Source of the DNA: an uncultured Campylobacterota bacterium | GTDB taxonomy: Bacteria > Campylobacterota > Campylobacteria > Campylobacterales > Sulfurovaceae | Length of the DNA: 64,000 nt | Assembly: GCA_937141405.1 (NCBI GenBank) | Contig: CAKZQQ010000003.1 | Span: forward strand, 62,001-126,000 | Reading direction: 5' to 3' | Part shown: piece after piece, positions 1 to 11,902 of the stretch | Position numbering within the stretch: position 1 is the stretch's first letter | Layout: the number at the start of each line of letters is the position of its first letter | Notes under the pieces: model-generated | What the model was told of the DNA's origin: nothing | What the model saw: the letters and a program-made list of their open reading frames with translations, nothing else | Databases searched by the model: none | Translations under genes and position numbers: made by a program

Positions 1-742
1 AAACTGCCTGTTGTGTTATCCCTAGCACTGTAGCGATCATCTGCTGAGAATATCCTTTTTCATAGGCTTTTACTATCTGCTTATTTCTTTGCTTTATCTC
101 TTTTGTTTTCAACAATTGGTTCTTTAGTTTCTCTATGTCCAACTTCTTTTTTGTATTTGAAGTTTCAACTAGAGCAGATGCTTTTTTCATCTCATCTAGT
201 TGTGAACTATCTACTGTACTATTTAAAAATGCTTTTATTGCTTCTGTATCATTTTTGTAATTTTGTATTATCCATGACTGCTGTAAACATTCAGGTATAT
301 TTTTTCCATTCAAGAAATAGTTATAGGAGCCATAAGGATACTCTGCTATATCTTTTACAATCTTTGCTTTAAGCGGATTTTGTTCTATATATATCATAAG
401 TGTATAGAGGTAAGCTTCATTGGCAACATACCATGATTTAAATCTTCCTTGCCATAGATGTCCTGATCGTTTATATTTTTTATTGAAATAGATGGAGTAG
501 CTCATGCCCAGCTGTTTCATAAATCTTGAGAGGTTTGGTTGCTCTATCTCTACAAGTAAATGATAATGGTTAGACATGAGACAATAATTATGTATAGTAA
601 TGCCATAACTTCTAGCATAGAAGCACATTAACTCTTCAAAACATTCATAATCCTCTGCCTCTTCAAAGACTACTCTTTGTTCTACACCTCTATTGACTAT
701 ATGATAACAACCTACTGCTTCTATACGAGGTTTTCTTGCCAT
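1..742 (-). CDS. REP-associated tyrosine transposase (RAYT, Y1/HUH family), partial at window edge
   Basis: I translated the minus strand from the ATG at 742; the frame is open to base 1, so the C-terminus lies outside the window. It starts MARKPRIEAVGCYHIVNRGV, has the HUH metal motif NHYHLL near residue 66, and the candidate tyrosine in MIYIEQNP. A C-terminal helix-turn-helix-like stretch (EKGYSQQMIATVLGITQQAV) is visible. It is clearly paralogous to the gene at 1689-2456. Family knowledge: these single-strand nucleases act on REP-type hairpins. It is preceded on its own strand by GGGGTCAGGT, as is the paralogue. Confidence 0.88.
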   Translation of the reverse strand, partial: MARKPRIEAVGCYHIVNRGVEQRVVFEEAEDYECFEELMCFYARSYGITIHNYCLMSNHYHLLVEIEQPNLSRFMKQLGMSYSIYFNKKYKRSGHLWQGRFKSWYVANEAYLYTLMIYIEQNPLKAKIVKDIAEYPYGSYNYFLNGKNIPECLQQSWIIQNYKNDTEAIKAFLNSTVDSSQLDEMKKASALVETSNTKKKLDIEKLKNQLLKTKEIKQRNKQIVKAYEKGYSQQMIATVLGITQQAV

Positions 743-1667: not shown

Positions 1668-2524
1668 GGGTCGGGTGATAATGATAACTCACTTACTCCT
1701 CCTCTTCAACACCCCATGCACAGCAGGCTGTGATATGCCCAATACTTTAGCAATACCATGCTGAGAATAACCTTTCTCTATTGCTTTGAGTATCTTCATA
1801 TTTCGCTCTTTTATATCCCCAATGCCATCAAACATCTTGATCAAATCCTTTTCTTTTAACTTAATGTCAATATTCGGTGCATCAACCAAAGAGGATGCAG
1901 TTTTAAGTTCTTGTAGTTGTGCAGTATCAACGATTGAATTCAAAAATGCTTTTATAGCATCTTTATCATCTTTGTAGTTTTGCACTATCCATGAATCTTT
2001 TAAAAATGTAGGTATATTGTCTTCTAAAAAATAGTGACAAGAGCTATATGGATACTCTGCTATATCTTTGACTATCTTTGCTTTAAGAGGATTTTGTTCT
2101 ATATATATCATAAGCGTATAGAGGTATGCTTCATTGACAACATACCACGACTTGAATCTTCCTTGCCATAGATGTCCGCTTCGTTTGTGTTTTTTATTAA
2201 AGTAGATAGCATAATTCATACTCAACTGTCTCATAAACTTTGAGAGGTTCTCTTTTTTTATCTCTATAAGTAGATGATAGTGGTTGCTCATGAGACAATA
2301 ATTATGAAGTGTGATGCCAAAGCTTTTAGTGTATAAGCACAGCAACTCTTTAAAATATTCATAATCCTCTGCTTCTTCAAAGACCACTCTTTGCTCTACA
2401 CCTCTATTGATGATGTGATAATATCCGGGTATCTCTATTCGTGGAAGTCTTGGCATGATAACTCTTTATTGTAATTTTTATAATGATATCATAATAACAT
2501 TAAGTTATCATTATCACCTGACCC
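1668..2524. mobile_element. RAYT gene bounded by a 22-bp inverted repeat
   Basis: Bases 1668-1689 on the plus strand and 2503-2524 on the minus strand match at 21 of 22 positions (GGGTC, then G or A, then GGTGATAATGATAACT). The pair encloses the transposase ORF almost exactly, and the left copy reaches into its stop codon. This looks like the unit mobilised or recognised by the enzyme. Its right end is only 26 bp from the first CRISPR repeat. Confidence 0.6.
1689..2456 (-). CDS. REP-associated tyrosine transposase (RAYT, Y1/HUH family)
   Basis: 255 aa, starting MPRLPRIEIPGYYHIINRGV. The HUH motif NHYHLL is near residue 66 and the candidate nucleophilic tyrosine is in MIYIEQNP near residue 115. 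A C-terminal helix-turn-helix (GYSQHGIAKVLGISQPAVHG) follows at about 228-247. Family knowledge: TnpA_REP enzymes nick single-stranded REP hairpins and are usually domesticated single-copy genes. Here a close paralogue lies 1.7 kb away in the same orientation (1-742). The gene is framed by an inverted repeat and sits next to the CRISPR array. Confidence 0.9.
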   Translation of the reverse strand: MPRLPRIEIPGYYHIINRGVEQRVVFEEAEDYEYFKELLCLYTKSFGITLHNYCLMSNHYHLLIEIKKENLSKFMRQLSMNYAIYFNKKHKRSGHLWQGRFKSWYVVNEAYLYTLMIYIEQNPLKAKIVKDIAEYPYSSCHYFLEDNIPTFLKDSWIVQNYKDDKDAIKAFLNSIVDTAQLQELKTASSLVDAPNIDIKLKEKDLIKMFDGIGDIKERNMKILKAIEKGYSQHGIAKVLGISQPAVHGVLKRRSK

Positions 2525-2550: not shown

Positions 2551-5500
2551 GCTTTAACCTACTCTCAAATCCCCATTTGATATAATTACTTAGTTGGGCG
2601 AGTGGTCATCTTTTTAGCTTTAACCTACTCTCAAATCCCCATTTGATATAATCGCAGATGCTGCTGTAATTGACCCGCTTTTGCTTTAACCTACTCTCAA
2701 ATCCCCATTTGATATAATACTCGAGAACACGCTTATGAAAAGTGACGGGCTTTAACCTACTCTCAAATCCCCATTTGATATAATGCCGGTAGTGCGCGGC
2801 TATTGAATGTCGAGGCTTTAACCTACTCTCAAATCCCCATTTGATATAATAGAAAAAGGAGACAAAGTGAAAGATAAATGCTTTAACCTACTCTCAAATC
2901 CCCATTTGATATAATACACATTAGAATACATAAACAATGTATTTAGCTTTAACCTACTCTCAAATCCCCATTTGATATAATTATATTAATAGCAATTTCA
3001 TTTTTTGTTCTGCTTTAACCTACTCTCAAATCCCCATTTGATATAATAGTTGTATTTGGTACACAGCATTACAGTGGCTTTAACCTACTCTCAAATCCCC
3101 ATTTGATATAATTGTGGATTGGGAGGCTAATAGCAATAAGGGCTTTAACCTACTCTCAAATCCCCATTTGATATAATCTGATCATACATACCATATATCT
3201 TCCCTAGCTTTAACCTACTCTCAAATCCCCATTTGATATAATGTCTTAATTTACTCACTCTCAATAGAAAGAGCTTTAACCTACTCTCAAATCCCCATTT
3301 GATATAATCACAAAAGCTTATAATACAAAAAAACGATTGCTTTAACCTACTCTCAAATCCCCATTTGATATAATAAGGCCGGGATCTTCTTAAGATACCT
3401 ATATGCTTTAACCTACTCTCAAATCCCCATTTGATATAATCACTTGGTGGGTTTATTGGTAGTGTTGTTGGCTTTAACCTACTCTCAAATCCCCATTTGA
3501 TATAATCGAATTAGAATATATCAATAATGTTTTCAGCTTTAACCTACTCTCAAATCCCCATTTGATATAATAAATAATAAATAATATGACGTCTGAATTA
3601 CGCTTTAACCTACTCTCAAATCCCCATTTGATATAATGATATAGACCCTATTTGGCAGTCTCTTGAGCTTTAACCTACTCTCAAATCCCCATTTGATATA
3701 ATACGCGAAAAAGCGTCAAGATGAAATCACAGGCTTTAACCTACTCTCAAATCCCCATTTGATATAATACAGAAAGCTATCTAACAGAACAAGAAGTTGC
3801 TTTAACCTACTCTCAAATCCCCATTTGATATAATCGGGTCATGGTCGCCTAGGTGCATCACGATGCTTTAACCTACTCTCAAATCCCCATTTGATATAAT
3901 TTTTACTTATATCTACAGGAGGATGAGGTGGCTTTAACCTACTCTCAAATCCCCATTTGATATAATTGACCTAGGGTTTAAAGCTGGGTACGAGTGCTTT
4001 AACCTACTCTCAAATCCCCATTTGATATAATCTATGAAAAGTCTTACTTCACAGAGAAAGGGCTTTAACCTACTCTCAAATCCCCATTTGATATAATAGA
4101 AGATATTTTCGCAAGAAAGATTTAACGCTTTAACCTACTCTCAAATCCCCATTTGATATAATTAATATTGATAATCTATATACCATGTTGAGGCTTTAAC
4201 CTACTCTCAAATCCCCATTTGATATAATTAAGCTCTTTTTTAATAACTCCATACTTAGGCTTTAACCTACTCTCAAATCCCCATTTGATATAATAGAACA
4301 AGCAAGCTATAGAACTTTGGTCAGCTTTAACCTACTCTCAAATCCCCATTTGATATAATCTTATGCAACTACACCAGCTAGCTTTAACCTACTCTCAAAT
4401 CCCCATTTGATATAATATTTTGATTTGGATTGTCAAGCTCAAATGCGCTTTAACCTACTCTCAAATCCCCATTTGATATAATATTATATAGAGGGGTTAA
4501 GCACAACCCCAAGCTTTAACCTACTCTCAAATCCCCATTTGATATAATATATATTTTGCGAACTCAAAAGCAACGGCAGCTTTAACCTACTCTCAAATCC
4601 CCATTTGATATAATTGATTTTGCAACAGTCTTATTAGCTCGCGAGCTTTAACCTACTCTCAAATCCCCATTTGATATAATTGTTGTCGTCTGTACCGCCA
4701 CCAGTATCATGCTTTAACCTACTCTCAAATCCCCATTTGATATAATGAGCAAAAAACAGAAGGAAGCAGCACAGCAGCTTTAACCTACTCTCAAATCCCC
4801 ATTTGATATAATCTAGAGTAATGTATATAGACACAGAGACTAGCTTTAACCTACTCTCAAATCCCCATTTGATATAATAAACAAAGCGTTTGAATATCTT
4901 GATGCACTGCTTTAACCTACTCTCAAATCCCCATTTGATATAATAGATAATAGCGTATGAGAGAAAATGGCTCGGCTTTAACCTACTCTCAAATCCCCAT
5001 TTGATATAATCGCAGAGAAAGGTTACAAAGACCAGATGGGCTTTAACCTACTCTCAAATCCCCATTTGATATAATCACCGACCAATGCATAATATTAATC
5101 TGAGTGCTTTAACCTACTCTCAAATCCCCATTTGATATAATTAACATCAAATCTTGTTGTTAATGGATGTAGCTTTAACCTACTCTCAAATCCCCATTTG
5201 ATATAATTTTCTTTTTTAGTCATTGTTGTCTCCTTTGCTTTAACCTACTCTCAAATCCCCATTTGATATAATAACACCTACAGAAGATGTGGAAAAAGAT
5301 AGGCTTTAACCTACTCTCAAATCCCCATTTGATATAATAACATTAGTAAATATAAGCACAGAATATCAGCTTTAACCTACTCTCAAATCCCCATTTGATA
5401 TAATTAAGCTCTTTTTTTATGACTCCGTACTTAGGCTTTAACCTACTCTCAAATCCCCATTTGATATAATCGAAGCGATCTTAATAAACTATAAAAATCG

Positions 5501-5603
5501 GGCTTTAACCTACTCTCAAATCCCCATTTGATATAATTAATTGCTTATCCAAATCGAATATATCTTCGCTTTAACCTACTCTCAAATCCCCATTTGATAT
5601 AAT
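2551..5603 (+). CRISPR. Type II-C-like CRISPR array, 47 repeats, 46 spacers
   Basis: I counted 47 copies of a 36-nt repeat that starts GCTTTAACC and ends CATTTGATATAAT; all look identical by eye, including the first and last. Spacers are 29-30 nt except spacer 28 (4360-4380, 21 nt) and spacer 45 (31 nt). Each repeat ends in TGATATAAT, an extended -10 box, so transcription is expected on the plus strand from inside each repeat, as known for Neisseria and Campylobacter type II-C loci. The array lies on the far side of cas2, and the cas genes run the other way. Two spacer pairs (6 and 15; 26 and 44) are diverged versions of the same coding sequence. Confidence 0.99.
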
Positions 5604-5615
5604 ACGGTTCAAGCA

Positions 5616-5636
5616 AAGTCCCACCCTGTGGGACTT
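5616..5636. terminator. Perfect 9-bp hairpin between the array and cas2
   Basis: AAGTCCCAC and GTGGGACTT flank a 3-base loop. Neither side has a clear T-tract. It lies just downstream of the last repeat, whose -10 box would otherwise drive transcription antisense into cas2, and just after the cas2 stop on the other strand. A bidirectional transcription barrier is a reasonable reading. Confidence 0.5.
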
Positions 5637-5651
5637 ATAGGCAAAAATATT

Positions 5652-6005
5652 TCAAAAAACCATGGTGGTTTGACCTTGTTTGGTTATTTCTTCTTCTGGT
5701 TTTTTTCGATAATTTTCTACAACTACCATATTTTGAAATTGTGCTTCAGTGATTTTAAGCACTCTTATTGATCCGTTCGGCGGTGAAACTTCCTCTATAT
5801 AATGTTCATATTTTTGAGCTACCGCCAGACTACGACAAAATCGAATGTAGATAGAGTATTGCAACATTATAAACCCATAGCTTAAAAGCTTAGATCTAAA
5901 TCTTCTATACACTTTTAAATCTTTTTTAGTCTCTGTTGGCATATCAAACATCACAAATAAAACCATTTTTCTGTACCCACTTAAATTATTATTTATATTT
6001 CTCAT
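5652..6005 (-). CDS. cas2: CRISPR-associated endonuclease Cas2
   Basis: 117 aa, the usual size for type II Cas2. The core VLFVMFDMPTETKKDLKVYRRFRSKLLSYGFIMLQYSIYIRFC matches the ferredoxin-like Cas2 fold, with the conserved aspartate in MFDMPT. The start follows the cas1 stop by one base, so the two are translationally linked. Family knowledge: a Cas2 dimer bridges two Cas1 dimers in the spacer integration complex. It is the last gene of the cas9-cas1-cas2 operon and is followed by a strong hairpin and the array. Confidence 0.95.
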   Translation of the reverse strand: MRNINNNLSGYRKMVLFVMFDMPTETKKDLKVYRRFRSKLLSYGFIMLQYSIYIRFCRSLAVAQKYEHYIEEVSPPNGSIRVLKITEAQFQNMVVVENYRKKPEEEITKQGQTTMVF

Positions 6006-6006
6006 A

Positions 6007-6882
6007 TCATAACTGCATAAACAATTCCAAATTTTCTTTTTTGCCTAAACAGATTGATTGATAAGAGGCAACTAAGCTTTTCATTGCATCTTTTAACAAT
6101 ACCTTTTTACCAAAACCATCTATAACCTGTGTGAAAAGCAAAGATACCAATTCTTGTTTAATCTGCGAGGTTAATTTTGTATTTTTTTTGAAGTTCTGCC
6201 CAACGAACCTATCCACGATTGGTCTAGATGGCTCAAGCAGGTCATCTGCTAAATTAAAAGCGTTCAATTCACTACTGTGCCAAATACCAAAAGCGGGGTT
6301 AAGGCCATAGGCAACTATATAGCGTGCTATTGCGCTTCTAAATATGCTATATCCATAATTGAGTGCACCATTTCTAGCATCAAATTCATCTTGTCTAGCA
6401 AAATCTTTTCCAAACAAAGCTTTAAAATAATAAGATGCCGCAATTGACTCTATATAAGTTTTATCTGCTGATTGCACTTTATTTACCAATGCATATAAAT
6501 ACTCATTGGTATCATGACTACCGAGAACCAAAGCCTGATGATGCACCTTTGTCTTAATTATCTCTTGCCAAAGTCTATTCTTCTTTGGCTTAGAAAGTAC
6601 TAGTTGTGCTTTTTGCACTTTGACGGCACGAGAATTTTTATAAAGTCCTATACTTATGGCAGATGGCATATAAGTTTCATCTACAAATACAACAGAAATA
6701 TTTGCTTTTGCCATATTTGAAAGAAGTGCAGAGGTAATTGTGGTTTGTTGATTTTCTATGATTACTATATCTATATCATCTAAAGATACTGTAGTTTGAG
6801 TAAATTCATTTTTTACACTCATAGAATTATTTTGGTAGCTTAAATATGATCTATTTTTGATAAAAATTTGTTTGAAAGACAT
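6007..6882 (-). CDS. cas1: CRISPR-associated endonuclease Cas1 (type II)
   Basis: I place the start at ATG 6882 (MSFKQIFIKNRSYLSYQNN, 291 aa). An upstream in-frame ATG at 6927 would add 15 residues (MLSRATRF...) that are not Cas1-like and overlap the tracrRNA gene. The integrase core is present: NGALNYGYSIFRSAIARYIV, then GIWHSSELNAFNLADDLLEP with the metal-binding His and Glu. Cas1 joins new spacers to the repeat. It is co-oriented with cas9 and cas2. The tracrRNA terminator ends a few bases before its start codon, so cas1 translation and tracrRNA termination share sequence. Confidence 0.94.
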   Translation of the reverse strand: MSFKQIFIKNRSYLSYQNNSMSVKNEFTQTTVSLDDIDIVIIENQQTTITSALLSNMAKANISVVFVDETYMPSAISIGLYKNSRAVKVQKAQLVLSKPKKNRLWQEIIKTKVHHQALVLGSHDTNEYLYALVNKVQSADKTYIESIAASYYFKALFGKDFARQDEFDARNGALNYGYSIFRSAIARYIVAYGLNPAFGIWHSSELNAFNLADDLLEPSRPIVDRFVGQNFKKNTKLTSQIKQELVSLLFTQVIDGFGKKVLLKDAMKSLVASYQSICLGKKENLELFMQL

Positions 6883-6966
6883 TAAAACGCCCCGATAAGG
6901 AATAAACCTTGTGGCTCGGGACAACACCTTGCTTTAACCAAAGCTATCAAATCCCCATTTGATATA
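6880..6966 (-). ncRNA. tracrRNA
   Basis: The anti-repeat lies at 6931-6966. On the plus strand it shares the first 9 bases of the CRISPR repeat (GCTTTAACC) and a 20-base block TCAAATCCCCATTTGATATA. The middle of the duplex differs (about 7 repeat bases against 9 here), which gives the expected bulge. Read on the minus strand, the anti-repeat is followed by a tail ending in a nested stem-loop (CCCGA 6916-6920 with TCGGG 6891-6895, and AAGG/CCTT inside) and GGGGCGTTTTAAT, a rho-independent terminator. A TATAAT sits 5 bases upstream of the anti-repeat. All parts of a type II tracrRNA gene are visible; length about 85 nt. Confidence 0.92.
6884..6920 (-). terminator. tracrRNA terminator, immediately before cas1
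   Basis: On the minus strand the stem CCCGA...TCGGG with an inner AAGG...CCTT stem is followed by GGCGTTTTAAT. The final T-run ends at the cas1 start codon (6880-6882). The GGGG of the stem is the only purine-rich stretch near the right distance to serve as the cas1 ribosome binding site. Confidence 0.7.
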
Positions 6967-6971
6967 TGAAA

Positions 6972-6977
6972 ATTATA
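6972..6977 (-). promoter_or_regulatory. -10 box of the tracrRNA promoter
   Basis: TATAAT on the minus strand, 5 bases before the anti-repeat block. This places the start of transcription almost exactly at the first base of the anti-repeat. There is no clear -35; Campylobacterota sigma-70 promoters often lack one. The promoter lies in the 73-bp gap after the cas9 stop codon. Confidence 0.65.
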
Positions 6978-7000: not shown

Positions 7001-10000
7001 TTAAGCCTTACTAATATTCCCAAAAAAATCAATATAAATTCTTTGAACTATTGTAGTTTGATTTAAAGTTTTAAAATATCTTTTCTCTAAAGTTTTATTT
7101 ATTCCTTTTAATTCTAACTTATTATTTCCTCCAGATATATTACCTCCGCCGTTAAAGATATAAAAGTCACTTTTATTTTCCTTTGTATCAGTGATTTTTA
7201 CTAAATCATTTTTATACAAAATTAAATCAGCTTTCTTGTCTTTAAGCTCTTTTTGAAACTTTGGATTTATTCTTGTATCAATATCATTAGCAATTGAACT
7301 AAAGTAATTAAATCCAATAGCTTGTCCCCTTTTTTCAGTATTAAAAAGTTCTGTGTTTAATATTGATTCATGCATTTTTATAACAAATGGTTCTTTTGAG
7401 CTTATAGCTTTTTTATAGCTTTCTAAAGTAAGTTTTTCAATTTTATTCTTTTTTCTTTTTGGAAATATAATGGCTCCAGAATCAACATTTGATATTTTAG
7501 TTTTATAAAGATTAAGTGAGCTTACTATCTGACTCTTTTCTTTTTTAGTAGGAAAACTACATTTTAAGCTATCCATAGCTTTTGAAATCGTTTGTTTTTT
7601 TGACTTTAACTCTTGTATTTGATTATCTAGCTCAATATTTTCTTCTTGTTTAGCTTTTGATACCTTTTTCTTTTCATCCAAAGGTTTTATCTCTTTTTCT
7701 ATACTTTTTAGTTCATTTCTCAATCTTAAAAGTTCATCGGCATAAGCTTTTATTGCAGGTATTATTTTTTGTTGCTTTTTAGGGTCTAACCTTTTTTGAA
7801 TAGACTCTACCTCTTTTAAAACTTCATTATCGCTTCTATCCTTATCAAATCCATTGACTTTTTTTATTAGAAGAGATTTATCAATAGCTACTTTTTCCAT
7901 CTCTGCTAATATCTCTTTATTGGTTTTTGGGTCTTTTGTTATATATAGTTTTAGATTGCCGTCTTTAAAACCTTTCATATTTGTTTTTCTTTTATTATAC
8001 GGGCATACATAGAATTTATTTTCTTCATACTTTTTCACTAAACCTTTGAGATATTCAACTATATTAATTCCATCTGTAGAAATAGGTAAATTTGAGCTAA
8101 TTTTTTCCTTTTGAGCTTTTACTTTATATTTATTCTCTTTTTGCTTAAAGTAGCTATGAAGGGTGTTTATAGCAGTATTGTCACATAAAGCTATTGTAAA
8201 AGCATCTAGTGTATGGTGGTAGTTTGTATCCCTATCTTTCTTATCATCTTCATTTTTTGGCATAATTTCACTTATACCCCAGATATATTTTAATTCACTA
8301 ATAGCCTTACCGCTTACGCTAAAAATATGTCGCTCCCCATCTTTATTATGCTCTTTTTGTTTTGGATATAAGTAATGGTTTAAATATTTTGCAACTGTTT
8401 TTGTAGCTGTTCTAGTATCGTTTAAAAAGCTATCCTGCCAATGCTCTTTTTCCATCACACTATTTATAATACATTCGTCACTTAGCCACGCTTTTTTCTT
8501 TTTATCCATAAAAGAGTTTTGTACTCTTCCTTTAAAGTCCTCCCATTGCCCTTTTGAACTTAAATAGCTTATAGGATGCTGGTTTGATTTGTCTTGATTT
8601 GCTTTTTTCTTTACGAGAATTTTATTTTTAAAAGAGTTTATCCATATCACAGACCTTGGAATAAAATGCTCAACTTCTGTTTCATTTTCATCAAAAGCTT
8701 CATCTTTAGTAATTGGTTCACCTGAATATAGACACAAACATCCATCTTTTCCTTGTTCTATAAATAGTTTTGCTCTTTCTATGTTTTTCTTTGATTCTTT
8801 TATATTATTCGCTTTTAAAAACTTTTTAGCATCATCATTTTTCTTTTTATCTTTCTTTTGATTCTCTTTTATTTTTTCCTCTTCTTTTGAGGAGTTAAGC
8901 TCCCTTGCACTCTCTATTCTTATCTCATCAATATGCCCGTATTTTTCAATGAGTTGATTAATAAGTTTTCGTAAAATCGATAAAACTCTTTTTACTTTAG
9001 GAGCGATCATAGGCTGATAAAACAAATGCTCTTTTTTGAAATAAGGTAGCTTTTCTTCAAGCCATTTTATATCATATTCTGTAGGCTCTAAAGGTGGTAA
9101 GTAATCATACTTTGGCATACCTACATATAAACTATCATACCCTAAACTATTTGTTGCTTCATAATATGTTTTATTTTCATTATTCATCACTTCTAATATT
9201 TCATTTATAAATCTTAATGAAAATGACCCAAAACCATCCATTCCCTCTAAAGATGAAATATCCTCTAAAAAATCATTATTCAAATTTATACCGTATTTTT
9301 GAAGTATCTGTGATATATGTTCTTCTCGTGAACTTTTATTTTTAAAATAATAAAGCTCGAGCAATATTTCATTATAAAAACTGTTATCTTTAACTTTAAA
9401 ATCTATACTATATTTATTTAATACCACAAGCATCTTTCTATGCGCTTCTATATTTAGTACTGTTTGACTTACTTTTTCTGGGATATTTAGCTTGAAATCT
9501 TTTTTTAACGGGTTTTTTAAAAGATTTTTTGCAGTGATCTCATTTGCATTTGGTGTATCTATCCAAAATTCTACTACACTTTTAACCTCATCCTTAGATA
9601 AAGATTGAATCTCTCCATTTTTATCAATAATCTCATAGTTATCTATTTTTTGCCTAAGGGTTAATTCTATATTTTTTACATTTGCCAAAGGCACTCTTTT
9701 TTCAGTTCCTTTAGGATTATATTTATGATAAAAAGAACAATAAGCCACCATATCCTCAAAACTTTTTAAGGCTCTTTGATAAAATGGTGTATTTACTCTA
9801 TCTTCGTCTAAAAGTTCATCTATAAAGTTTTGGCACTCCTCTTGCGAATGAAAAATGACTTTATTATCACATTGCAACCGTACGACTTTTTTAAACTCCT
9901 CTTTATGCAAATCTCTATCTAAAGAGTTACTATAATCACTTTTTTTATTTCTTACAGGTACATTTTGAAAAAGCTCTTTTAACTCATCCCTTTTATTAGT

Positions 10001-10501
10001 AAGTACTTTTGATGGCAACTCATAACCATTTTCAAGATACTCTTTTTTATTTTTTGCTACTGCCTCATTTATAGCACCATCGTCATTAGAAGTTGAGAAC
10101 ATATTGTTATATCCTCTATCTGTAAGTATTGAATAAACAGCCAAAATAAACTCCTCTTTAGATAGATTTTGAGAAGTAGCTTTTTGCCTTAGGTCATAAA
10201 CATCCAAAGTTTTAATCTTAAAAGAGTTAAGATAATCTGTAGGGTTTTCAATAAATTTTTTATCAGCTATTTTATATTTGACAAATACTTTTCGTACAAA
10301 CTCTTTTCTTGCACTTTTTCTCTCGTTTATCCGTCTTCCACTTCTAAAATTTCTTCTATCTTCTGCTTTATTTGGCTCAGAAAAAACTATACTATTACTC
10401 GCCAATTCATTAAAACAAATCTGCCCCTCTTTAGTTTCTAGCTCTAACAAAGAAAAACCTATACTGTTTGCGCCCAAATCCAAACCTAGAACTCTTTTCA
10501 T
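7001..10501 (-). CDS. cas9: CRISPR-associated endonuclease Cas9 (type II-C-like, 1166 aa)
   Basis: I choose ATG 10501 (MKRVLGLDLG), which has AAGGGA 5 bases upstream; ATGs at 10504 and 10516 are in frame. RuvC-I has Asp8, the Arg-rich bridge helix is at 49-72, and RuvC-II is IRIESAREL with Glu530. The HNH domain runs from about 540 to 700, with catalytic His612 in VEHFIPRS. RuvC-III is YHHTLDAFTIAL with His763 and Asp766. All nuclease residues are present, so the enzyme should be active. The C-terminal part carries an unusual Lys/Glu-rich, probably coiled-coil stretch at about 915-980. The length lies between compact II-C forms (about 1000 aa) and II-A forms (about 1370 aa). It heads the cas operon. 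Confidence 0.97.
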   Translation of the reverse strand: MKRVLGLDLGANSIGFSLLELETKEGQICFNELASNSIVFSEPNKAEDRRNFRSGRRINERKSARKEFVRKVFVKYKIADKKFIENPTDYLNSFKIKTLDVYDLRQKATSQNLSKEEFILAVYSILTDRGYNNMFSTSNDDGAINEAVAKNKKEYLENGYELPSKVLTNKRDELKELFQNVPVRNKKSDYSNSLDRDLHKEEFKKVVRLQCDNKVIFHSQEECQNFIDELLDEDRVNTPFYQRALKSFEDMVAYCSFYHKYNPKGTEKRVPLANVKNIELTLRQKIDNYEIIDKNGEIQSLSKDEVKSVVEFWIDTPNANEITAKNLLKNPLKKDFKLNIPEKVSQTVLNIEAHRKMLVVLNKYSIDFKVKDNSFYNEILLELYYFKNKSSREEHISQILQKYGINLNNDFLEDISSLEGMDGFGSFSLRFINEILEVMNNENKTYYEATNSLGYDSLYVGMPKYDYLPPLEPTEYDIKWLEEKLPYFKKEHLFYQPMIAPKVKRVLSILRKLINQLIEKYGHIDEIRIESARELNSSKEEEKIKENQKKDKKKNDDAKKFLKANNIKESKKNIERAKLFIEQGKDGCLCLYSGEPITKDEAFDENETEVEHFIPRSVIWINSFKNKILVKKKANQDKSNQHPISYLSSKGQWEDFKGRVQNSFMDKKKKAWLSDECIINSVMEKEHWQDSFLNDTRTATKTVAKYLNHYLYPKQKEHNKDGERHIFSVSGKAISELKYIWGISEIMPKNEDDKKDRDTNYHHTLDAFTIALCDNTAINTLHSYFKQKENKYKVKAQKEKISSNLPISTDGINIVEYLKGLVKKYEENKFYVCPYNKRKTNMKGFKDGNLKLYITKDPKTNKEILAEMEKVAIDKSLLIKKVNGFDKDRSDNEVLKEVESIQKRLDPKKQQKIIPAIKAYADELLRLRNELKSIEKEIKPLDEKKKVSKAKQEENIELDNQIQELKSKKQTISKAMDSLKCSFPTKKEKSQIVSSLNLYKTKISNVDSGAIIFPKRKKNKIEKLTLESYKKAISSKEPFVIKMHESILNTELFNTEKRGQAIGFNYFSSIANDIDTRINPKFQKELKDKKADLILYKNDLVKITDTKENKSDFYIFNGGGNISGGNNKLELKGINKTLEKRYFKTLNQTTIVQRIYIDFFGNISKA

Positions 10502-10564
10502 CATAATCCCTTGCAATTCAATTTATCTATTTTACATAAATCTTTATTATTATTCCCCCTCAAT

Positions 10565-10957
10565 CTACCCAACCTGCCAAACACTGATCCATAACCTCTC
10601 CCAGGCAGGTTGATCGGCATCAAAATAACGCACTTTCGCATCAAGTATGATGCCATTATCTAGAAGCGAAGCGATGATGCGACTATTTTCTTTGGGGACA
10701 TACCCGACCTTTTTATCATAAGCATAGATCGCTACGGCATATTTGTCATAAGCATTTTCATGCTCTCTTTTGAATTGCAATCTCTGATTGTCAATGAAGT
10801 GCATGTCAGAAGCATCATTATATTGGAGCCCGGCGACTTTAATTGTAGTCAACTTAAAGCCTTTACACTCTTTTTGACCTTGGGCTTGCAGAGCAAAAGG
10901 CAACCCTGTCAACAACAGTGTAAATTTGTGTATAAACTTTCTTCTATTTGATATCAT
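10565..10957 (-). CDS. HIRAN-domain protein with a Tat-like signal peptide
   Basis: 130 aa. The N-terminus SNRRKFIHKFTLLLTGLPFALQA resembles a twin-arginine signal (RRKF followed by a hydrophobic stretch). The rest is a compact HIRAN domain: IKVAGLQY, LQFKREHENAYDKYAVAIYA, KVGYVPKENSRIIASLLDNG. Family knowledge: HIRAN domains bind DNA 3' ends in SWI/SNF-type helicases, and stand-alone bacterial copies occur; the role of exported ones is unclear to me. It lies between cas9 and a WYL regulator, all on one strand. No clear ribosome binding site is seen. A CRISPR role is speculative. Confidence 0.75.
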   Translation of the reverse strand: MISNRRKFIHKFTLLLTGLPFALQAQGQKECKGFKLTTIKVAGLQYNDASDMHFIDNQRLQFKREHENAYDKYAVAIYAYDKKVGYVPKENSRIIASLLDNGIILDAKVRYFDADQPAWERLWISVWQVG

Positions 10958-10996: not shown

Positions 10997-11902
10997 CTAT
11001 CTTGTTGCTTCCGATGTCTCTTTTATGTAAAGTTGTAAACTCTCTAGAAGCTCCTTTTGCAACCACTTCGGCTCCAATATATGGATGTAGGGCAGCCAGC
11101 TTTTAATCGCGGGCAATATCTCAAGCTTGTGTGTAATCTCACAACTTATCTCTATAGAGCCGTCCATATGTTCATCCTCTATCTTTTGTGATTTGTGTAG
11201 CTTTATATCTTTGAGGTAACGCGCCGCCTCGGGATGTGCGTAGAGTTTTATCGGTATCGGTTCTTGTGAAGAGCTCGACCATACACTTTTAATCTCATCT
11301 GCTTTAGCCATCATAGTGCGAGTAAGTGTTTGCGTTTCCCCTGTAAGTCTTTTAAATGATCTGATATTGGCGAGCAGAAAGGTTTTGATGCCGTCATCCT
11401 TATAGTCTCTTGCTACGAGATACCAACGCGTATTTTCAACATAGAGTTTGATAGGATCAACCCGTCTTTGGGAAGTATCATTCTCCTTTACATAACTAAA
11501 AGAACACTGCTCTTTTTTTGTAATGCATCTGAGTATCTCTTCTCCAAGTTTTTTAGGAAGATTTTTATATTCAAGCGCAAAAGCTATAAGATCTTTTGAG
11601 ATGTTGCTACGCTCTAAACACTCTACCTTGATCTCAACATTATGCGCAAAAGCTGCAAGGAGTGAGTGTCCAAAGTTATCGTCATTCGTATAGAGAGTAT
11701 CCATATCCAAATGCCAAACTCCTTTTTTATTGACAAGGGGGATAGACTCGTGTATGCTCTTCATATCGCGACTGATGGTCTTAGGGTTTACACCATACTC
11801 ACTCGCTATATGCGAACTCCGCAATCTCTCAAAGGCATAGAGTCGCCTTGTTATATCTACTATCCTTGAGATTTGCGCTTGGTTATTTGCTTTATATGCC
11901 AT
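10997..11902 (-). CDS. WYL-domain transcriptional regulator
   Basis: 301 aa. An N-terminal winged helix (ISRIVDITRRLYAFERLRSSHIASEYGVNPKTISRDMKSI, about 10-50) precedes a WYL domain (DPIKLYVENTRWYLVARDYKDDGIKTFLLANIRSFKRL, about 150-190) and a C-terminal extension. Family knowledge: WYL regulators bind nucleic-acid-like ligands and often control defence loci. It sits upstream of the HIRAN gene and cas9 on the same strand. Its start codon lies 5 bases after a TATAAT, so the mRNA may be leaderless. Confidence 0.88.
   Translation of the reverse strand: MAYKANNQAQISRIVDITRRLYAFERLRSSHIASEYGVNPKTISRDMKSIHESIPLVNKKGVWHLDMDTLYTNDDNFGHSLLAAFAHNVEIKVECLERSNISKDLIAFALEYKNLPKKLGEEILRCITKKEQCSFSYVKENDTSQRRVDPIKLYVENTRWYLVARDYKDDGIKTFLLANIRSFKRLTGETQTLTRTMMAKADEIKSVWSSSSQEPIPIKLYAHPEAARYLKDIKLHKSQKIEDEHMDGSIEISCEITHKLEILPAIKSWLPYIHILEPKWLQKELLESLQLYIKETSEATR

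What the first reader, a model, noticed from the sequence alone, without database searches (positions are those of the whole stretch)
4229..5434. Spacers 26 and 44 are a second synonymous pair
Spacer 26 (4229-4258) and spacer 44 (5405-5434) are both 30 nt and differ at three positions, again in one codon phase. On the minus strand both read KYGVIKKEL; the differences are TAT/TAC, GTT/GTC and ATT/ATA. Two independent pairs in one array with purely silent changes over the shared frame argue for repeated sampling of the same conserved windows, either through a strong acquisition hot spot (PAM plus sequence) or priming by the older spacer on an escaping target. The pair members are 18 spacers apart, so the events were well separated in time.
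Basis: partly seen in the sequence, partly recalled or inferred. Interest (0 to 1): 0.85.

Follow-up and report, generated by a model that had tools for sequence, protein, structure and literature searches.

The report
CRISPR spacer pair from inovirus replication gene
Two near-identical CRISPR spacers in this vent-type bacterium match, codon for codon, a replication gene of small filamentous viruses; a third silent variant of the same stretch sits in a filamentous prophage of the same genome, so the array sampled one conserved viral site at least twice.

Summary
Spacer 26 (4229-4258) and spacer 44 (5405-5434) differ at 3 of 30 bases; 200 shuffled arrays never gave a pair closer than 9. All three changes are silent in KYGVIKKEL. 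The reading frame is now shown rather than guessed. The same genome carries an integrated inovirus (filamentous-phage) prophage whose rolling-circle Rep gene contains KYGVIKKEL in frame, in a third silent version, 3 and 4 mismatches from spacers 44 and 26. A third spacer, 24, matches the prophage's Zot/pI gene with 6 differences, all silent. The spacers therefore come from relatives of the resident inovirus whose proteins are conserved while their codons drift. In-array mutation is unlikely: all 47 repeats are identical and neighbouring spacers are unrelated. The two spacers have the same ends, as expected if the same PAM was used twice. Priming is not needed and not shown; a true hot spot is possible but not established, because random resampling of an 8-kb genome can also give pairs. 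The CRISPR type (II-C) and inovirus targeting are known, so this is a new instance of a known process, useful for testing silent escape by a resident prophage.

The parts
4229..4258 (+). Spacer 26 (30 nt); antisense of KYGVIKKEL codons of an inovirus Rep gene
5405..5434 (+). Spacer 44 (30 nt); same site and same ends as spacer 26, three silent differences; third spacer from the cas-proximal (younger) end
4098..4126 (+). Spacer 24 (29 nt); antisense of VKSFLRKYL codons of an inovirus Zot/pI gene, 6 silent differences from the resident prophage
4945..4974 (+). Spacer 37; tentative second Rep site (RAIFSHTLLS against RLITSHTLLS); weak
   Evidence: p about 0.011 before correction for 46 spacers
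2916..2945 (+). Spacer 6, first member of the other pair (TLEYINNVF)
   Evidence: target not found
3507..3535 (+). Spacer 15, second member of the other pair (ELEYINNVF)
   Evidence: target not found
2551..5603 (+). CRISPR array, 47 identical 36-nt repeats, 46 spacers; crRNA direction inferred as +
   Evidence: repeat start GCTTTAA and end TATAAT as in known II-C repeats (own knowledge)
5652..6005 (-). cas2
   Evidence: Cas2_II, 9e-37
6007..6927 (-). cas1 (type II; true start probably the ATG near 6882)
6885..6975 (-). candidate tracrRNA: anti-repeat pairing with the repeat, then a terminator-like hairpin
   Evidence: duplex -44.5 kcal/mol; 200 control stretches mean -8.5, lowest -22.2
7001..10516 (-). 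cas9, 1171 aa

Best explanation
A type II-C CRISPR-Cas9 system of a Sulfurovaceae-like bacterium took two spacers, at different times, from the same 30-bp site near the 3' end of the Rep (rolling-circle initiator) gene of two related inoviruses. The protein at this site is conserved, so the two viruses differ there only in silent positions. The cut point is the same because both viruses keep the same PAM-side flank. The host also carries an integrated inovirus of the same group, with a third silent version of the site (two mismatches next to the PAM) and a diverged version of the spacer 24 site. It probably tolerates this prophage because the crRNAs match it too poorly to cut. Shown: the pair, the gene, the frame, the third version, spacer 24. 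Inferred: that the donors were free viruses related to the prophage, that PAM choice fixes the cut point, and that the resident copy escapes cleavage.
For: Third version of the site at G000:C5:259387-259416(-), codons 411-419 of a 455-aa Rep (Phage_GPA, REP_ORF2-G2P). The prophage also has Zot, an M13 pIV-type secretin and an integrase and lies beside tRNA-Met. Spacers 44, 26 and 24 are 3, 4 and 6 mismatches from the prophage, while 450 comparisons with host DNA pieces gave at best 7. All five variable sites of the Rep window and all six in the Zot window are silent, assuming the preceding Ala codon is GCT in the donors. An array in another genus of the family, with a near-identical repeat, has a spacer matching an inovirus secretin (exceeds all 1193 shuffles). 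All 47 repeats are identical. 3' flanks of the three best sites (Rep, Zot, sister secretin) share NNGRANTNTG. II-C arrays grow at the last repeat (PMC12638026, PMC12080349), and decayed repeats lie at the opposite end in sister arrays, so spacer 44 is the younger.
Against: No virus or prophage with an exact match to spacer 26 or 44 was found, so the donors are inferred. The PAM rests on three diverged sites. Only 3 (perhaps 4) of 46 spacers are traced to inoviruses.
Confidence: 0.85

Rival explanations
1. A true acquisition hot spot: the Rep 3' site is taken up far more often than other PAM sites, for sequence or replication reasons.
For: Two of the three firmly traced inovirus spacers hit one site with identical ends. 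The flank C[AT]GG is kept at this site in several other inovirus Rep genes because it is the complement of a conserved Pro-Ala pair.
Against: With about 115-420 candidate sites, 20-30 inovirus spacers would give roughly 0.5-4 pairs by chance. No other array found here has a spacer demonstrably at this site. The resemblance of sister-array spacers L099_12/33 to spacers 26/44 was at background level.
Confidence: 0.3
2. Priming: the older spacer 26, partly matching an escaping virus, promoted acquisition of spacer 44.
For: Spacer 44 is younger and differs from spacer 26 at one position in the seed half and two further out. Type II priming has been reported (PMC8265633).
Against: In that report new spacers spread over kilobases around the old target rather than re-taking it. 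A Cas9 cut inside the site would destroy it as a prespacer. No neighbouring cluster of Rep spacers was found.
Confidence: 0.12
3. Spacer 44 (or 26) arose inside the array by duplication and mutation.
For: Near-identical sequence.
Against: No mutations in 47 repeats (1692 bases). Adjacent spacers are not duplicated. Silent-only change in a real viral frame has no cause inside an array.
Confidence: 0.02
4. The spacers derive from earlier versions of the host's own prophage (self-acquisition), which then drifted.
For: The resident prophage is the closest known relative of both spacers and of spacer 24.
Against: The three spacers would need 3, 4 and 6 later changes, all silent, and spacers 26 and 44 differ from each other, so at least one donor was a different virus. 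Targeting a resident inovirus is reported to be lethal (PMC6813254).
Confidence: 0.1

Closest known systems
Inovirus-targeting CRISPR spacers (Roux et al. 2019, PMC6813254), especially type II-C of Neisseria meningitidis
   Same: Inoviruses are widely targeted; Neisseria meningitidis is an outlier for inovirus spacers; spacers matching a resident inovirus are rare (45 of 1429 genomes).
   Different: Here the resident prophage differs from the spacers by 3-6 silent changes, beyond that study's 0-1 mismatch limit, and two spacers in one array share one cut site.
Type II-C CRISPR-Cas9 (Neisseria/Campylobacter kind)
   Same: cas9-cas1-cas2, candidate tracrRNA, 36-nt repeats ending in a promoter-like TATAAT, cas-proximal growth inferred.
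   Different: Cas9 is only distantly related to the Cas9s with solved structures; the PAM is unknown, tentatively NNGRA.
Type II primed adaptation (Streptococcus mutans, PMC8265633)
   Same: Several spacers against related viruses in one array.

Membership tests
Type II-C CRISPR-Cas | Cas9 with type II Cas1 and Cas2 | tested here: met
Type II-C CRISPR-Cas | No csn2 or cas4 in the operon | tested here: met
   the two genes beyond cas9 match a WYL regulator and PDC-M03B, not Csn2/Cas4; the array follows cas2
Type II-C CRISPR-Cas | tracrRNA pairing with the repeat | tested here: met
   predicted duplex -44.5 kcal/mol; expression not tested
Type II-C CRISPR-Cas | New spacers at the last repeat | tested here: inconclusive
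   decayed repeats at the opposite end in sister arrays; this array has none
Inovirus (filamentous phage) as donor and resident prophage | Zot/pI morphogenesis ATPase | tested here: met
   PF05707 1e-8, phrog_197 1e-23
Inovirus (filamentous phage) as donor and resident prophage | Rolling-circle Rep | tested here: met
   PF05840 1.4e-9, PF23343 1.5e-8
Inovirus (filamentous phage) as donor and resident prophage | Small hydrophobic major coat protein | not tested
   two short candidate membrane proteins (L013:3549-3930), no family hit
Primed adaptation | Higher uptake from a target of a pre-existing spacer | not testable with these tools
   needs an acquisition assay

The most novel reading that the evidence does not exclude
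The silent differences are an escape track: the resident inovirus survives in a host with at least three spacers against its kind because codon changes, two of them in the PAM-proximal seed of both Rep spacers, spare it, while the array shuts out its close relatives. The host's CRISPR memory would then act as a resident-specific superinfection barrier.
Probability: 0.3. Interest if true: 0.55.

Novelty: new member of a known kind. Interest (0 to 1): 0.42.

Why it matters
It ties an unannotated array to a virus group and a gene, gives three natural silent variants of one protospacer (two in the array, one in the host's own prophage), and makes the mismatch tolerance of this II-C Cas9 directly testable. 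It also warns that mapping limits of 0-1 mismatch miss such host-virus links.

Tried and rejected
Exact or degenerate protospacer searches in viral contigs and phage and plasmid records gave no related target; the 80 loci fetched hold no Rep relative. I first thought the sister array L099 hit the same Rep site (note); the similarity was out of register and at background, so it was withdrawn. Spacers 6/15 against the secretin: 8 mismatches, a poor peptide score and an unsuitable flank; not accepted. The viral hits to LEYINNVF are scattered and not convincing. PAM fixed by proline codons: 57 of 194 antisense NNGRA sites in the prophage genes (29%) come from proline codons anyway, so no enrichment can be claimed. 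Integrase-like matches of other arrays (L134_15) are generic.

Full report
Observation. The array at 2551-5603 has 47 identical repeats GCTTTAACCTACTCTCAAATCCCCATTTGATATAAT and 46 spacers, 29-31 nt except spacer 28 (21 nt). Spacers 26 and 44 are at the stated coordinates and differ at positions 14, 17 and 23. Within the array this pair is extreme: 3 mismatches, against a minimum of 9 in 200 shuffles; spacers 6 and 15 are next with 8.

Setting. cas2 (5652-6005), cas1 (6007-6927) and cas9 (7001-10516) lie on the minus strand beside the array. A strong anti-repeat lies between cas9 and cas1, and no csn2 or cas4 was found beside them. This is a type II-C locus. Arrays with near-identical repeats occur in Sulfurovum, Sulfurimonas and Arcobacteraceae assemblies. 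Published work places II-C spacer uptake at the last repeat (PMC12638026, PMC12080349), and decayed repeats in sister arrays lie at the other end. Spacer 44 is therefore probably the younger and spacer 26 the older.

Target. A search of the host's own genome and 98 relatives found one further copy of the site, on contig C5 of the same genome, 2 mismatches from the combined pattern: 3 from spacer 44 and 4 from spacer 26. It lies at codons 411-419 of a 455-aa protein that matches Phage_GPA and REP_ORF2-G2P and carries the HUH-type motif PHFH. The gene is the last of an integrated element with tyrosine integrase, a large Thr/Asp-rich protein in the place of an adsorption protein, Zot/pI, secretin/pIV and Rep, ending against tRNA-Met. 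That is an inovirus prophage. Homologous Rep genes occur in 22 of 175 family genomes, and the C-terminal motif around the spacer site is conserved, e.g. RFGMLKKEL in a same-genus genome.

Silent changes. Spacer 26, spacer 44 and the prophage all encode KYGVIKKEL; the five variable positions are all third codon positions (the Ala codon just outside the peptide is read as GCT in the spacers by inference). Spacer 24, two spacers away from spacer 26, encodes VKSFLRKYL exactly as the prophage Zot gene does, with six differences, all silent. The same 45 spacers against ten 8.5-kb host pieces never gave fewer than 7 mismatches (450 comparisons). In another array, spacer L099_3 matches inovirus secretin genes in frame and exceeds all 1193 shuffles in a profile test.

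Mechanism. Both spacers have the same two ends, so the cut point was the same. The 3' flanks of the three best sites (Rep CTGGATTATG, Zot ACGAACTTTG, sister secretin CAGGAGTTTG) share NNGRANTNTG; a tentative fourth (spacer 37) has GGGAATACGA. NNGRA is offered as a working PAM, not as a result. The prophage has 423 NNGRA sites on both strands, 115 if T is required at position 7. With such numbers a pair is expected once the array holds roughly 15-30 inovirus spacers; how many it holds is unknown. A hot spot is therefore possible but unproven. Priming has no support beyond plausibility. In-array mutation conflicts with 1692 unmutated repeat bases and with the real viral frame.

Resident prophage. 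Relative to the prophage, spacers 26 and 44 both mismatch at the 2nd and 5th base from the PAM side; spacer 24 has six mismatches, one at the 6th base. Targeting of a resident inovirus is reported to be lethal and rare (PMC6813254), so tolerance by mismatch is the likely reason both coexist; this is inference.

Strand. All firmly traced sites (Rep, Zot, sister secretin) are antisense to the gene, so the crRNA would pair with the coding strand, which in known inoviruses is the packaged strand (own knowledge). Type II spacers in general lean slightly the other way (PMC8482600). With three independent sites this is only a lead.

Verdict. Real and well explained: repeated sampling of one conserved inovirus site by a II-C array, with a third silent version in the host's own prophage. 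A new instance of a known process, useful as a test system.

Noticed in passing
window 6885-6975 (-): Candidate tracrRNA with near full-length anti-repeat and terminator-like hairpin between cas9 and cas1.
   Followed up: partly
window 4360-4380: Spacer 28 is only 21 nt long in an array of 29-31-nt spacers.
   Followed up: no
window 5617-5637: Hairpin AAGTCCCACCCTGTGGGACTT just after the last repeat; sister array L101 has a similar inverted repeat at the same place.
   Followed up: partly
window 1-740 and 1689-2456 (-): Two related sequences next to the old end of the array; 1689-2456 matches REP-associated tyrosine transposase below NCBI's cut-off, and 312-611 is 83% identical to 2026-2325.
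   Followed up: no
window 10565-10957 and 10997-11902 (-): A PDC-M03B-like protein and a WYL-domain regulator directly beside cas9.
   Followed up: no
L099, spacers L099_12 and L099_33: A Sulfurovum array with a near-identical repeat also holds a related spacer pair (three substitutions over 29 nt, same 3' end), here not silent in the open frames read; target unknown.
   Followed up: partly
L100 end and L101 start: The two array-bearing contigs of G146 end in the same spacer and repeat, so they are probably one split array.
   Followed up: no
L013:3228-3368 and 3445-3585: A 141-base direct repeat, 88% identical, inside the resident inovirus prophage before the coat-protein region.
   Followed up: no
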